A model generated the notes under the pieces. That model ran no database searches, was not told where the DNA came from, and saw nothing but the letters and a program-made list of their open reading frames with translations. Below are positions 1 through 3,950 of a stretch of 9,856 nucleotides of DNA, one piece after another. The position numbers and the translations under genes are program-made. Source of the stretch: Sulfuricurvum sp. (GTDB lineage: Bacteria > Campylobacterota > Campylobacteria > Campylobacterales > Sulfurimonadaceae); contig JAGXHZ010000071.1 of the NCBI GenBank assembly GCA_024635855.1, positions 1 to 9,856 on the forward strand, in the 5' to 3' direction. How positions within the stretch are numbered: position 1 is the stretch's first letter; each line of letters starts with the position of its first letter.

Positions 1-1286
1 ACTTTTTTCTTAACAACGCCCGGCTTAACTTTAAACGGCTCAGTAGGTGTCCCTATTTTGATTTTACCTTCCATCCCCTTTGGTGCAATAACATCAAAGT
101 AGTAGCTGTGATCTTCATTGAGCGTGTTTTGCAACAAGAACGTATAGGCGTTATCAACCCGTACTTTCCCCTCATCGGTGTGATTAATTGCATAAAGACG
201 ATTCTCTTTGTTGATGTTCAGGAGCATATATTCTTTTTCACTTCCCATCATCCCTAAAATAATGCTGACAACAATCAAGATACCAATGTAACCCAAAATT
301 TTAGGACGGAAATAGTGTGTTTTCCCCTTCATAAAGAGAGTTTCTTTTTCACTCGACCATTCAATCAAACTTGGTTTTCCAAGCTTGCCCATGACTTCCG
401 TACACGCATCGACACACTCAAGACAGTTGATACACTCAAGTTGTAGCCCTTTTCGAATATCGATGTGAGTAGGACATACCGCTACACAGCTCTCACAGGT
501 AGTACACTCTGCCTTCGCATTCACACTCAATAAATCTTTTTGCTTAGTATACAACTTCTCTTTTTGCTCATTATAAATCTCACCACCACGATTCGGATTA
601 TAAATCGCCATGATAGTATCATCATCATAGAGAACCGATTGAATACGGGAATAAGGACATACGTAAACACAAAAATTTTCTTGCAAGAAAATGATATCAT
701 AAACCAAGAAAGCAACAATACCGAGGATTGCACCTACAAGAACGAGATGCTCATTAGGATTTTGGATGTACGCCAAGAAATCTTCAGGAGGGACAAAATA
801 CCACATCAAATCCGCCGCCGCAATAAATGCCAATCCCGTCCAAATTAAAATCGCCACCAAACGCTTGATTTTATTCTCTGTCTTTGAATAATCAGGCTCT
901 TGCTGCTTATTTTTAATCCGCTTGTGAAGCCCAAGGAGTTTTGTCTCGATCAAATCACGGTAAACAACCCTAAAAATAGTTTGAGGACATATCCATCCAC
1001 AGAAAACACGACCACCCAAGACGGTAATACCAAAAACGCCTATAAACAAGAGCATCAATAGAAATGGCATCAAATAAAGTTCTTGCATATCAAACTGAAT
1101 AAACATCAGGTGGAGTTTTAACTTATCAAAACTCAACAAGAAGAGATGATTTCCATCAATGCGTATCCACGGAATAATCAATGACAAAATGGTCACAAAT
1201 CCATAAAACCAATACCGCTTAATTCTCCATGGAACCCACTTGCTCAAATAAGCTTTCCCCGTAAGGGATACTTCTTCCGTACTCAT
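1..1286 (-). CDS. ccoG: CcoG (RdxA/FixG-type) cbb3 oxidase assembly ferredoxin protein, 3' end outside window
   Basis: Membrane iron-sulfur protein needed to assemble cbb3-type cytochrome c oxidase; the family is known to act as a Cu(II) reductase supplying copper to the oxidase. I translated 428 codons before the window edge. The N-terminal half has membrane segments near residues 25-43, 70-92, 143-165 and 181-200, with the Cys pairs CGWICP (C96, C100) and CVYVCP (C206, C210). Two [4Fe-4S] motifs follow: C261, C264, C267, C271 and C285, C288, C291, C295. A last membrane segment lies near 330-347, followed by the start of the extracytoplasmic C-terminal domain. Family members are about 460-480 residues, so roughly 40-50 residues are missing. 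The ATG at 1286 overlaps the stop of the recombinase-like gene in an ATGA, with AAGGAGA at 1297-1291 as ribosome binding site. Identification is secure. Confidence 0.95.
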   Translation of the reverse strand, partial: MSTEEVSLTGKAYLSKWVPWRIKRYWFYGFVTILSLIIPWIRIDGNHLFLLSFDKLKLHLMFIQFDMQELYLMPFLLMLLFIGVFGITVLGGRVFCGWICPQTIFRVVYRDLIETKLLGLHKRIKNKQQEPDYSKTENKIKRLVAILIWTGLAFIAAADLMWYFVPPEDFLAYIQNPNEHLVLVGAILGIVAFLVYDIIFLQENFCVYVCPYSRIQSVLYDDDTIMAIYNPNRGGEIYNEQKEKLYTKQKDLLSVNAKAECTTCESCVAVCPTHIDIRKGLQLECINCLECVDACTEVMGKLGKPSLIEWSSEKETLFMKGKTHYFRPKILGYIGILIVVSIILGMMGSEKEYMLLNINKENRLYAINHTDEGKVRVDNAYTFLLQNTLNEDHSYYFDVIAPKGMEGKIKIGTPTEPFKVKPGVVKKK

Positions 1287-1984
1287 TCATTCTCCTTTTT
1301 GATTGGTTCAATGCTTGGGCATTGAATGGTTTCGATCATAATCGCTCTTGCATCTGACTCGTTATTCGAAAGAACAACTCCCCCAACCAAGGCTTTTAAC
1401 TCTCGCGATTCGACATAATCTTTTAATGAGCTGCGACTCACTTTCATTTGACGAGCTATTTCACTGACGCTATTGCCCTGCTTGAGCAGAGAAATAATTT
1501 GATCTAACTTTAAATCAAATTTTGATACCGATTTAGACCCGCGTGGTCGCCCGATCCCTTTTTTGTCATCATTTTGTACCATTTGACGAAGCTGGTCAAT
1601 AAGTCCTAAAACGACCATTATATCACTCTGTGCGTTGATTATAATCCCTTGTTTTACACAATGAATCGTATTGCCATTTTTAAGAAGACAACTCATCACC
1701 TGCACCACATCTTCGATATTAACGCTCAGTACCCACACGTCATAAATCAATAATGTATCTGCCCTCAAAGAACGAAAGAGCTCAACGACATTATTTCGAT
1801 CATTTATCCGTTTATTTTGGGAAAGCTGGTCAATCAGCTCTTTATTGATTGGGAGTTTCATTTGATCGCTATAAGCATTAATCAATTTTAATTGCTCATA
1901 AACGTTATCAAAATCTTTATCAGGACGAATATAGCTCACAGTCATTGCGGTTAAATTCCTCTCAAAGTTGAATTTATTCGTCAT
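1283..1984 (-). CDS. Degenerate serine-recombinase-like protein with C-terminal helix-turn-helix, probably a regulator
   Basis: This 233-residue protein aligns by eye with gamma-delta/Hin-type resolvases. The N-terminal strand SYIRPDK (17-23) sits where resolvases have Y-x-R-V-S-T, and LRADTLLIYDVWVLS (73-87) sits where they have the DRLGR segment. A GIGRPRGSK linker (143-151), resembling the minor-groove arm or an AT-hook, leads to a helix-turn-helix at about 157-191 with the typical GNSVSEIARQMKVSRSSLKDY pattern. The nucleophilic Ser is replaced by D22, and the D-R-x-x-R arginines become W84, V85 and V88; R20 and R63 remain. The E-helix region is short and lacks its ER-x-x-x-x-ER residues. 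Recombination is therefore unlikely, and I infer a DNA-binding regulator. It overlaps ccoG by 4 bases. M14 (ATG at 1945) is an alternative start: it matches where resolvases begin and has GAGAGGA upstream at longer spacing. Confidence 0.75.
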   Translation of the reverse strand: MTNKFNFERNLTAMTVSYIRPDKDFDNVYEQLKLINAYSDQMKLPINKELIDQLSQNKRINDRNNVVELFRSLRADTLLIYDVWVLSVNIEDVVQVMSCLLKNGNTIHCVKQGIIINAQSDIMVVLGLIDQLRQMVQNDDKKGIGRPRGSKSVSKFDLKLDQIISLLKQGNSVSEIARQMKVSRSSLKDYVESRELKALVGGVVLSNNESDARAIMIETIQCPSIEPIKKENE

Positions 1985-2024
1985 AGTAGCCTATTTCGAC
2001 GGCTTAAGTCAATAAAGAATCTAT

Positions 2025-2819
2025 TTATTTCGTCACAATCGTATCACTCAAAAGTACGACTTCGCATTGCAACTCAATTTCAAACTGTTCAAACACCTGT
2101 TTTTGGGCTTCTTTTATCAGAAAAAGGGCATCTTCATACTCTCCTCCGCCGTAGTTGACGAGAAAATTAGCATGAACATCACTAAATGCCATCGCACCCA
2201 CCCGTTTTCCTTTTAATCCTACTGCCTCAATAAGCCGTCCCGCATAATCGTTTGGAGGATTTTTAAAACAACTTCCTGCACTGGGAACATTTGGCTGATT
2301 GGAACGCATTTGGGCAAACATTTCCAATCGCTCATGCGAAAATCCCTCTTCAAGCTCAAAAGCCGCCTCAAAAACGACTTCATTGATGGATGTTTTTCGA
2401 TAACCATACACAATGTCAGTTTTTTGTTTCCATCCGCTTTGAGTACGAATCGCAATCAAATGGTTGAAAATCTCATACTCTTTAAGCCCTGCATTCATTT
2501 TTAGCATCCCACCCAAAGTGCCCGGAAGCTTGGAAAGATATTCGAAATGAGCAATATTGTTTTTTTTGCAAAACGACACAACTCGTCCTCCGGGAGTTGC
2601 CGCACCGATAATCAGACGATTCTCCTCAATGCGGATAAAATCATACTGCTTTGAAAGCATCATGAGCGGTGGAGGAGTGGGTGAAACGAGGAGGTTATTG
2701 GCACTTCCGACAATAACGCAACCTTCGGGAACATTATCATCTTCGATCAGAACTACATCGACAACAGGACCGATGCGAATAGAACTAAATTTGGAGAAAT
2801 CAATGGTTTTAGAAATCAT
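2025..2819 (-). CDS. murB: UDP-N-acetylenolpyruvoylglucosamine reductase MurB
   Basis: FAD enzyme that reduces UDP-GlcNAc-enolpyruvate to UDP-MurNAc with NADPH in the cytosol, the second committed step of peptidoglycan synthesis. The 264-residue product carries FAD-binding motifs GSANNLLV (38-45) and LPGTLGGMLKMNAG (98-111), the active-site segment YGYRKT (138-143), the proton-donor serine in AGSCFKNP (S183), GLKGKRVGAMAFSDVHANF (201-219) and a conserved glutamate in LQCEVVLLS (E253). It is shorter than the E. coli enzyme, consistent with the type II form found in this group. Its ATG overlaps the fliQ stop as ATGA, and I see no Shine-Dalgarno sequence just upstream, so translation probably depends on coupling to fliQ. 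A 40-base gap without an obvious terminator separates it from the next gene. Confidence 0.95.
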   Translation of the reverse strand: MISKTIDFSKFSSIRIGPVVDVVLIEDDNVPEGCVIVGSANNLLVSPTPPPLMMLSKQYDFIRIEENRLIIGAATPGGRVVSFCKKNNIAHFEYLSKLPGTLGGMLKMNAGLKEYEIFNHLIAIRTQSGWKQKTDIVYGYRKTSINEVVFEAAFELEEGFSHERLEMFAQMRSNQPNVPSAGSCFKNPPNDYAGRLIEAVGLKGKRVGAMAFSDVHANFLVNYGGGEYEDALFLIKEAQKQVFEQFEIELQCEVVLLSDTIVTK

Positions 2820-3085
2820 TGCATAAAAGTCGGAATCAGATTAAACATCCGAATAGTGAAATCTTGCATCTCGTTCATCATCCATGGCATCGTTAAAATA
2901 ATGACAATAATAATTCCGACAATCTTCGGAATAAAACTCAGCGTCATCTCATTGATTTGAGTCGTGGCTTGGAAAATACTCACGGCAAGTCCCAAAAACA
3001 TCCCTACAAGCAATGCGGGCAAGGATAAAATCAATGCGATTTTAAACGTCTCAATACCAAGACCAATCAGCTCTTCTTGCATCAT
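2816..3085 (-). CDS. fliQ: Flagellar export gate protein FliQ
   Basis: Small inner-membrane component of the flagellar type III export gate (FliP-FliQ-FliR). The 89-residue protein has two hydrophobic segments, about 14-37 and 50-70, separated by the typical ATTQINEMTLSFIPK loop (40-54), and ends in a short amphipathic tail; length and layout match the family. The gene begins with two consecutive ATG codons. GAGGA lies about 9 bases before the first, inside the end of mqnD, whose stop is 1 base away. The gene stands apart from other export genes and is paired with murB, an arrangement I recall from Campylobacter. Virulence-type homologues (SctS) look similar, but no other type III secretion gene is present. 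Confidence 0.93.
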   Translation of the reverse strand: MMQEELIGLGIETFKIALILSLPALLVGMFLGLAVSIFQATTQINEMTLSFIPKIVGIIIVIILTMPWMMNEMQDFTIRMFNLIPTFMQ

Positions 3086-3086
3086 A

Positions 3087-3950
3087 TTAGTTATTCCTCA
3101 ATGCGGTGTATTCTTGCGGAATACAAAAATCACGTGCATCCATTTTTTGATCAAAAAAGTTGTGTTTATACCCGATTTCAAAGAGTTTGTTTATCGCTTC
3201 AAACTGTACATCACTGAGGCTGATTGACTCATCATTTGCGTACAATTCGAGATATTTTTCCAATGTTTCGGCATCAATTCGTACCAACGAACGCTCGATG
3301 AGCATTTTTGAGAGAAGTTCTTTGTGATCCCGTGCTACCTGTACCGCTTTGGTGAGAAGATTTTCATACGAGATAGCCGATGTCAGAGGTAAAGAACGTC
3401 GAATCGCCATTCCGCCCAAGGGCAGAGGAAGATCACCGCCGCTTAGTTCGCACCATATATCCCATAGCTCTCGCTCGACCACCAAAGAATCATCGTAACC
3501 TAAAATACTTTCATGGATCAATACCCCAGCATCCACTGTCCCGTCTATCACTGCTTGTTCAATATCGAGAAAATTCATGTAAACAATTTTAGCGTCAGGA
3601 TAGGCAATACGAAAGAGAAGGGCATTGGTCGTATATTTTCCGCTAAGTGCCACTTTGAATTTACGTTTTAATACCGTATCGCGTTTGCGAATAAGCTTAG
3701 GTCCATAACCGCTTCCAAAGCTGACTGCGGTACGAATAAGGGCATATTCTTGGGCAATATGGGGATATAAACCAAAGCTGATTGCGCTTATATCGTATGT
3801 CCCTTTGAGGGCTTCAATATTAAGTGTTTCAATATCAAGCGGTATATTTTCAAAAACGGTATTAGTACGACCTACCCACCCAAACTTGATGGCGTAATAC
3901 ATAAAAATATCATCCGCATCAGGAGAGTGGGCAATTACCATTTTTTTCAC
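3087..3950 (-). CDS. mqnD: MqnD-type menaquinone biosynthesis enzyme (1,4-dihydroxy-6-naphthoate synthase)
   Basis: Likely converts cyclic dehypoxanthinylfutalosine to 1,4-dihydroxy-6-naphthoate in the futalosine pathway to menaquinone, the standard quinone route in Campylobacterota. The fold is the MqnA/MqnD periplasmic-binding-protein type. Visible motifs, numbered from the start used here, are the N-terminal AHSPDADDIFMYYA (7-20), TLNIEALKGTYDISAISFG (42-60), LIHES (144-148) and LPLPLGGMAIRR (174-185). H146 in LIHES seems to match the catalytic histidine of MqnD; the 'HE...PLG..A.RR' spacing favours MqnD over MqnA, but substrate is not proven by sequence. I chose the GTG at 3950 (287 residues) because AAGAGG at 3964-3959 lies 8 bases upstream. 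A GTG at 3959 would overlap that site, and the ATG at 3941 is too far from it. First gene of the leftward operon; fliQ starts 1 base after it. Confidence 0.82.
   Translation of the reverse strand: MKKMVIAHSPDADDIFMYYAIKFGWVGRTNTVFENIPLDIETLNIEALKGTYDISAISFGLYPHIAQEYALIRTAVSFGSGYGPKLIRKRDTVLKRKFKVALSGKYTTNALLFRIAYPDAKIVYMNFLDIEQAVIDGTVDAGVLIHESILGYDDSLVVERELWDIWCELSGGDLPLPLGGMAIRRSLPLTSAISYENLLTKAVQVARDHKELLSKMLIERSLVRIDAETLEKYLELYANDESISLSDVQFEAINKLFEIGYKHNFFDQKMDARDFCIPQEYTALRNN

What the first reader, a model, noticed from the sequence alone, without database searches (positions are those of the whole stretch)
1283..1984. Serine-recombinase fold that has lost its catalytic residues, coupled to ccoG
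Directly visible: a resolvase-like N-terminal domain, a GRPRG linker and a C-terminal helix-turn-helix in the right order. The nucleophile position is Asp (D22) and the DRLGR-type motif is W-V-L-S-V. From family knowledge, loss of Ser and these Arg residues abolishes strand cleavage, while DNA binding by linker and helix-turn-helix should survive. The ATGA overlap with ccoG and co-orientation with mqnD suggest a regulator tied to respiration. That would be an exapted recombinase acting as a transcription factor rather than a pseudogene, since the frame is intact and embedded in a core operon.
Basis: partly seen in the sequence, partly recalled or inferred. Interest (0 to 1): 0.7.

Follow-up and report, generated by a model that had tools for sequence, protein, structure and literature searches.

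The report
Dead recombinase turned gene switch
A DNA-cutting enzyme of the resolvase family has lost its cutting residues and appears to have become a gene switch that sits next to, and probably controls, copper-handling and sulfide-oxidation genes in sulfur bacteria.

Summary
In detail: the ORF has a serine-recombinase fold, Asp at the nucleophile position and no DRLGR arginines. The change is old and fixed: in 164 distinct relatives (Sulfuricurvum, Sulfurimonas, Sulfurovum, Sulfurospirillum and kin) Ser occurs in 1 and Arg at either DRLGR position in 0. They form one clade apart from canonical recombinases. dN/dS is 0.07-0.10. ccoG follows directly in 179 of 180 loci; the exception is a contig end. 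The true start is 13 codons later (1945).

New here: (1) a conserved promoter-operator before the gene, TGACG-(18, A/T-rich)-TTGACTTNANTCGTCA-(8)-TATAAT, core found in 146 of 164 upstreams versus 0 of 164 shuffled. (2) The same operator before a sulfide:quinone-oxidoreductase-like gene in 15 of 28 genomes with the regulator and 0 of 10 without; in 34 of 63 group B loci that gene lies downstream of ccoG in the same cluster. (3) Two near-invariant cysteines: C99 164 of 164, C222 163 of 164.

Best reading: a domesticated resolvase acting as an autoregulated, probably thiol-sensing repressor of a ccoG/SQR-like regulon. Binding, repression and signal are inferred.

The parts
1283..1945 (-).
1946..1984 (-).
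1919..1921 (-). Codon D22 at the catalytic Ser position (Ser in 1 of 164 relatives)
1721..1735 (-). Codons W84-V88, replacing DRLGR (no Arg at positions 85 or 88 in 164 relatives)
1688..1690 (-). Codon C99, invariant Cys (164 of 164)
1319..1321 (-). Codon C222, near-invariant Cys of the C-terminal tail (163 of 164)
1538..1552 (-). GRPRG arm (minor-groove arm in Hin-type proteins, recalled)
1406..1516 (-). Helix-turn-helix domain; S183-R184-x-S186-L187-x-D189-Y190 kept in at least 93% of each group
2025..2035 (-). Operator box 1, TGACGAAATAA (overlaps the 3' end of murB)
2007..2012 (-). -35 hexamer TTGACT
1997..2002 (-). Operator box 2, CCGTCG here (family consensus TCGTCA, inverted to box 1)
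1983..1988 (-). -10 hexamer TACTAT
1973..1983 (-). Operator box 3, TGACGAATAAA (seen in many group A upstreams printed; not counted)
1958..1963 (-). Ribosome-binding-site-like GAGAGG
3..1286 (-). ccoG (cupric reductase for cbb3 oxidase assembly), cut by the window edge; overlaps the regulator by ATGA

Best explanation
A resolvase-type serine recombinase was domesticated once in a Campylobacterota ancestor, lost strand cleavage and became a dedicated transcription factor. Its HTH reads TGACG, and its GRPRG arm lies in the adjacent A/T tract. The sites are an inverted pair flanking and overlapping the -35/-10 region of its own promoter, so bound protein would block RNA polymerase and repress the regulator-ccoG operon, much as TnpR of Tn3 represses from res. 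In part of the family the same protein would also control an SQR-like flavoprotein gene and, in some genomes, NifX-like, DUF6858 or rhodanese genes through the same operator. The two near-invariant cysteines (C99, C222) probably form the sensor; I favour modification or bridging by sulfide/polysulfide or oxidant, which would release DNA and turn on CcoG and the SQR-like enzyme; copper is the rival signal. Shown by sequence: fold, loss of catalytic residues, conservation, linkage, operator and operator-regulator co-occurrence. Inferred: binding, the sign of regulation, the Cys switch and its signal. The confidence given is for the core claim (a DNA-binding regulator of its own operon).
For: Fold. 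Catalytic loss fixed: Ser at position 22 in 1 of 164, Arg at 85 or 88 in 0 of 164, while 28 of 28 canonical recombinases with an intact N-terminus from the same phylum show R-[VI]-Ser (counted from the printed sequences). One clade, SH-aLRT 100. dN/dS 0.07-0.10. ccoG adjacency 179 of 180 loci. Operator core with at most 1 mismatch in 146 of 164 upstreams, 0 of 164 shuffled; box 1 exact in 142 of 164, spaced 17-19 bp in 140 of those 142. Whole-genome pattern: 30 of 50 genomes with the gene (28 at its own promoter) versus 1 of 20 without; reversed control pattern 5 hits in the 70 genomes (Fisher p 1.4e-5). SQR-like upstreams: 15 of 28 gene-bearing versus 0 of 10 gene-less with at most 4 of 15 mismatches; shuffles 14 of 560 and 3 of 200 (p 0.0024). 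SQR-like gene downstream of ccoG in 34 of 63 group B loci. Cysteines. Not found in viral contigs with the one peptide pattern scanned.
Against: No binding or expression data. Genomes in the Fisher tests are related, so p values are optimistic; shuffles keep base content only. In 13 of 28 gene-bearing genomes the SQR-like upstream shows no clear operator, and 18 of 164 gene upstreams lack a good core. With the -10 hexamer added the pattern finds only 32 of 80 and 3 of 18 gene-bearing genomes. Several off-gene pattern hits look like chance (one, L234, lies inside a reading frame). ccoG is in 387 of 397 genomes but the regulator in only 98, so ccoG can do without it. Box 2 is degenerate in the window. 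The box 1-box 2 span (39 bp) is longer than the res subsites recalled (25-34 bp). The promoter scan of the window finds no more promoter-like sites than its shuffles (2 versus mean 2.8).
Confidence: 0.8

Rival explanations
1. The same repressor, but copper rather than sulfide or oxidant is the signal: C99 and C222 bind Cu(I), and the operon answers copper supply for cbb3 oxidase through the cupric reductase CcoG.
For: ccoG is the one partner kept in 179 of 180 loci. CcoG is described as a cupric reductase, and its deletion lowers oxidase activity by about 50% in Campylobacter jejuni (PMC8267372, passages). A Cys pair is a usual Cu(I) ligand set (recalled).
Against: The other genes tied to the operator or the operon are SQR-like, NifX-like, DUF6858 and, in one genome, rhodanese genes, which point to sulfur or redox chemistry. 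I did not search the loci for copper pumps or chaperones.
Confidence: 0.3
2. The protein activates rather than represses: box 1 upstream of -35 recruits RNA polymerase.
For: Box 1 sits just upstream of -35 at a fixed spacing of 17-19. In several SQR-like promoters (L329, L330, L331, L333) the two boxes persist where TTGAC is weak.
Against: Box 2 lies between -35 and -10 and, in group A, box 3 overlaps -10, positions typical of repressors (recalled); many own promoters have near-consensus -35 and -10 hexamers.
Confidence: 0.15
3. A recombinase that still cleaves or synapses DNA with unconventional residues, inverting or excising at the TGACG sites.
For: The fold, two active-site arginines (R20, R63) and DNA-binding parts are kept; the sites are inverted repeats.
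Against: The Ser position varies freely in group B (thirteen residue types) and DRLGR arginines are absent in 164 of 164. Helix E is about 10 residues shorter than in the canonical L189. The three weak inverted repeats found in 900-3200 do not coincide with the operator boxes. Sulfuricurvum-type loci stay collinear around the gene.
Confidence: 0.02
4. A decaying pseudogene that hitch-hikes beside ccoG.
For: Catalytic residues are lost; one genome (G198, locus L176) does carry a broken copy beside ccoG.
Against: dN/dS 0.07-0.10, invariant residues in 164 relatives, conserved operator.
Confidence: 0.01

Closest known systems
Tn3/gamma-delta TnpR resolvase
   Same: Same fold and domain order; TnpR also represses its own promoter and tnpA by binding res (PMC7157771, passages).
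   Different: TnpR keeps Ser and DRLGR and recombines; this family has lost them, has a shorter helix E, two near-invariant Cys and sits beside ccoG.
Hin/Pin/Mpi DNA invertases (database labels: 'DNA invertase Pin-like', 'recombinase family protein')
   Same: GRPR arm followed by HTH (recalled for Hin); best NCBIfam match is Mpi invertase PRK13413 (43.9 bits).
   Different: Far below that model's cut-off (272 bits); catalytic residues gone; no invertible segment found in 900-3200.
Sulfide/persulfide-sensing repressors (BigR, SqrR, CstR)
   Same: Cys pair in the protein; an SQR-like gene among the targets; BigR is inactivated by H2S and polysulfides (PMC5823870, abstract).
   Different: Those are ArsR- or CsoR-type folds (recalled); here the fold is a serine recombinase. 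Sensing is not shown.
[quoted passage not shown]
   Same: A mobile-element protein reused as a DNA-binding regulator (search listing of PMC13418256; their origin as nuclease-dead TnpB is recalled).
   Different: RNA-guided TnpB fold versus sequence-reading HTH on a recombinase fold.

Membership tests
Active serine recombinase (resolvase/invertase) | Resolvase fold followed by HTH | tested here: met
Active serine recombinase (resolvase/invertase) | Nucleophilic Ser | tested here: not met
   Asp in the window; Ser in 1 of 164 relatives; 28 of 28 canonical controls with intact N-terminus keep it
Active serine recombinase (resolvase/invertase) | DRLGR arginines | tested here: not met
   0 of 164; R[LF]xR seen in 23 of the 28 controls, the other five read SRI where the print ends
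Active serine recombinase (resolvase/invertase) | R8 and R45 equivalents (R20, R63) | tested here: met
   R63 164 of 164; R20 101 of 101 in A, in B R 39, K 23, Q 1
Active serine recombinase (resolvase/invertase) | Invertible or resolvable DNA segment | tested here: inconclusive
   Only three weak inverted repeats in 900-3200, none at the operator boxes
NCBIfam PRK13413 Mpi invertase | Score above the curated cut-off | tested here: not met
   43.9 versus 272 bits
Autoregulatory transcription factor | Conserved operator at its own promoter | tested here: met
   146 of 164 upstreams
Autoregulatory transcription factor | Operator at another gene's promoter only where the regulator is present | tested here: met
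   SQR-like upstreams: 15 of 28 versus 0 of 10
Autoregulatory transcription factor | Binds DNA and changes transcription | not testable with these tools
   needs EMSA, footprint, deletion
Thiol-based sulfide/persulfide sensor | Conserved reactive Cys pair | tested here: inconclusive
   conservation met: C99 164 of 164, C222 163 of 164; reactivity and distance not testable here
Thiol-based sulfide/persulfide sensor | Responds to sulfide or persulfide | not testable with these tools
   no expression or binding data

The most novel reading that the evidence does not exclude
A previously undescribed family of sulfide/persulfide- or copper-responsive repressors whose sensing and dimerisation domain is a catalytically dead resolvase, domesticated once in Campylobacterota and used to couple cbb3-oxidase copper supply (CcoG) to sulfide oxidation (SQR-like) and, in a few genomes, cytochrome bd.
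Probability: 0.45. Interest if true: 0.85.

Novelty: new variant of a known kind. Interest (0 to 1): 0.74.

Why it matters
Where databases name this gene at all, they call it a recombinase, DNA invertase, HTH or hypothetical protein, so a probable regulator of respiration and sulfide use in Sulfuricurvum, Sulfurovum and Sulfurospirillum is hidden behind the wrong name. It would be a serine recombinase fixed as a pure transcription factor with a defined operator and regulon, and it makes testable how these sulfur bacteria match oxidase copper loading to sulfide. The operator and the Cys pair make the hypothesis directly testable with one purified protein.

Tried and rejected
Pseudogene or lone variant: rejected. 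Embedded in a core mqnD-murB operon: rejected as a general rule. Mobile element: no relative in viral contigs by the one peptide pattern used; plasmid matches in 36 records, all under 60% identity, the five shown at 26-31%; the phage collection was not searched. Stand-alone DUF6858 copies in other genomes were a false lead: in 20 regions fetched (7 group A and 3 group B genomes with the gene, 10 without) no SQR-like neighbour and no operator. The own genome is not held, so the regulon in the window's own strain could not be listed. The pattern had the wrong spacing (5 instead of 6); it hit 6 of 70 genomes, none at the gene, and serves as a chance level. Reversed control patterns gave 5 hits in 70, 6 in 80 and 1 in 68 genomes. 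Off-gene hits not followed up: G063, G212 and G224, G361:C25, G393:C76, G146, G212 and G383, G126, G390, G373, G313 and G047. The AlphaFold job gave no coordinates, so the C99-C222 distance is unknown; the second job was not used. Paper searches whose listings showed nothing on this family: (open-licence PMC only). The review PMC8987985 (passages) names no serine recombinase turned transcription factor in the passages shown.

Full report
What is there. The window (Sulfuricurvum-like; nearest locus L001, a Campylobacterales MAG, 96% identical over the protein) encodes on the minus strand an mqnA/D-like gene, fliQ, murB, then the flagged gene, then ccoG (gene names other than the flagged one are read from the sequence and recalled). 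The flagged protein passes the Pfam cut-offs for the resolvase domain and for the resolvase HTH. Its AlphaFold model (mean pLDDT 74, pTM 0.58, 35 sequences) matches Tn3, gamma-delta and Sin recombinases. D22 stands where canonical recombinases have Ser; V85 and V88 stand where DRLGR has arginines (alignment with L189).

Start codon. The gene is therefore 1283-1945.

How widespread and how dead. Loci (80 kept of 233 that encode a relative), searches of 397 Campylobacterota genomes and regions fetched gave, with the window, 180 ORFs in two groups: A (117, Sulfuricurvum/Sulfurimonas-like) and B (63), 164 distinct sequences (101 A, 63 B). Fourteen weaker hits were kept apart. Some loci repeat one genome in two collections. 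Named members include Sulfurimonas indica, Sulfurovum sp. NBC37-1 and S. lithotrophicum, and Sulfurospirillum barnesii, diekertiae, cavolei and arcachonense; for these last the position-by-position check was made only on the loci, not on every database hit. Of 397 genomes, 193 match the A+B alignment at E <= 1e-3, but 98 at E <= 4e-59, with a gap down to 5e-24. The Ser position is D 98, E 3 in A and thirteen residue types in B, Ser in one. Arg at position 85 or 88: 0 of 164. Of 30 PF00239 loci fetched from 25 genomes of the phylum (15 of which had a match at 1e-15), 28 have an intact N-terminus, and 28 of 28 show R-[VI]-Ser; 23 show R[LF]xR and five read SRI where the print ends (some of the 30 are near-copies). 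In a quick tree of 86 rows (16 A, 35 of 63 B, 10 C, 25 canonical) A+B form one clade, SH-aLRT 100. The helix E region is about 10 residues shorter than in L189.

Selection and linkage. dN/dS of the window against L001-L004 is 0.072, 0.079, 0.072 and 0.095 (own Nei-Gojobori script; the 13 leader codons are included, which can only blur it). ccoG lies directly downstream on the same strand in 116 of 117 A and 63 of 63 B; the single miss, L067, ends 135 bp after the gene. Other window neighbours are lineage-bound: murB 46 of 117 and 1 of 63, mqnA/D 42 and 0, recA 32 and 1. Of the 98 genomes two were not fetched: G035, where the coordinates show adjacency (47 bp), and G282, whose hit lies at a contig end. 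ccoG itself is in 387 of 397 genomes, so the linkage runs from regulator to ccoG and not the reverse.

Operator. Upstream sequences were taken for all 164 (half of them printed). They share TGACG, 18 A/T-rich bp, TTGACTTNANTCGTCA, 8 bp, TATAAT. The core TTGACN6CGTCA occurs with at most one mismatch in 93 of 101 A and 53 of 63 B, and in 0 of 164 shuffled upstreams; TGACG is exact in 142 of 164, at 17-19 bp in 140 of those 142. The window site scores 45.3 bits with the matrix, which it helped to train; 189 kb of shuffled loci gave no score of 14 or more, the same 20 real loci 19. Each half-site is a TGACG word followed by an A/T tract, which suits an HTH plus a GRPRG minor-groove arm (inference from Hin, recalled). 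The word and the recognition-helix residues are both highly conserved.

Regulon. The pattern TGACGN{15,24}TTGACN6CGTCA hit 30 of 50 genomes that have the gene (28 at its promoter) and 1 of 20 that lack it; the reversed control hit 5 times in the 70. With a -10 hexamer in place of box 1: 32 of 80 and 3 of 18 gene-bearing genomes, 3 of 50 gene-less ones, these three away from the ccoG places listed. Of the off-gene hits, some lie before an SQR-like gene (G361, G365, G393) or a NifX-like gene (G365, G306, the latter followed by a rhodanese); one (L234) lies inside a reading frame, and the rest, listed under Tried and rejected, were not followed up. Independently, in group B the SQR-like gene lies downstream of ccoG on the same strand within 6 kb in 34 of 63 loci, DUF6858 in 16, a lipoprotein in 13, NifX-like in 6 and cydA-like in 2: genes that share an operator in one lineage share a cluster in another. 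Direct test: SQR-like genes were found in 48 of 70 genomes; among the 28 gene-bearing group A genomes with one, at most 4 of 15 operator positions mismatch in 15, against 0 of 10 gene-less genomes (minimum 6); shuffles 14 of 560 and 3 of 200. A stricter scan that also asks for a -10 hexamer finds 6 of 28 and 0 of 13. Three of those 13 gene-less genomes (G338, G180, G199), left out's count, have ccoG beside the SQR-like gene but no operator. Relatedness makes the p values optimistic. The SQR-like protein is related to sulfide-quinone reductase 3hyv (E 1.6e-25) and keeps two Cys in 35 of 35 that align with Cys of 3hyv; the middle SQR Cys (recalled) is missing, so its activity is unproven.

Sensor. 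In a family where the mean column identity over 56 representatives is 42%, C99 is invariant (164 of 164) and C222 nearly so (163 of 164; the exception, L172, has a shorter tail). The 14 weaker hits, among them the canonical L189, have no Cys at 99. With SQR-like and cupric-reductase targets, a thiol switch is the most economical reading; sulfide/polysulfide, oxidant and copper cannot be told apart here. BigR is a published analogue by function (abstract of PMC5823870).

Mechanism and precedent. TnpR of Tn3 represses tnpA and itself by binding res, where the promoters lie (PMC7157771, passages). Losing catalysis while keeping this second job is a short evolutionary path (inference). No relative was found in viral contigs with the pattern scanned.

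Verdict. The finding is real and larger than reported: a domesticated, catalytically dead resolvase with its own operator and a small regulon around ccoG and an SQR-like enzyme. That it is a transcription factor is well supported by comparative evidence; the sign of regulation and the signal are inference.

Noticed in passing
L174, L175, L177-L185 (around 4.3-5.5 kb in each locus): A second, separate family of apparently dead serine recombinases: Asn at the Ser position in 11 of the 14 weak hits, DRLGR replaced by DLNVFGR-like sequences; 10 rows form one clade (SH-aLRT 99). In 11 of 11 loci compared it lies beside the same five chromosomal genes, UbiX-, CoaD-, Tmk-, HisS- and SpeA-like (names recalled from sequence). 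No ccoG hit in these loci.
   Followed up: partly
L176 (G198), beside ccoG: A broken copy of the regulator gene beside ccoG, in pieces with stops: apparently a natural loss in progress.
   Followed up: no
L357, L358, L359: Genomes with ccoG and the SQR-like gene adjacent but neither regulator nor operator found: the pairing of CcoG with the SQR-like protein exists without the regulator.
   Followed up: partly
L231:5977-6366, L230:4623-5012: DUF6858 (PF21651) recurs with the ccoG/SQR-like cluster; no paper in the library holds the term.
   Followed up: partly
L149, L154 (downstream of the SQR-like gene) and L231:10171-11706: A cytochrome bd subunit I gene (cydA-like, named from recalled sequence features) follows the ccoG/SQR-like cluster in two group B loci and lies near the operator-bearing cluster in L231.
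   Followed up: no
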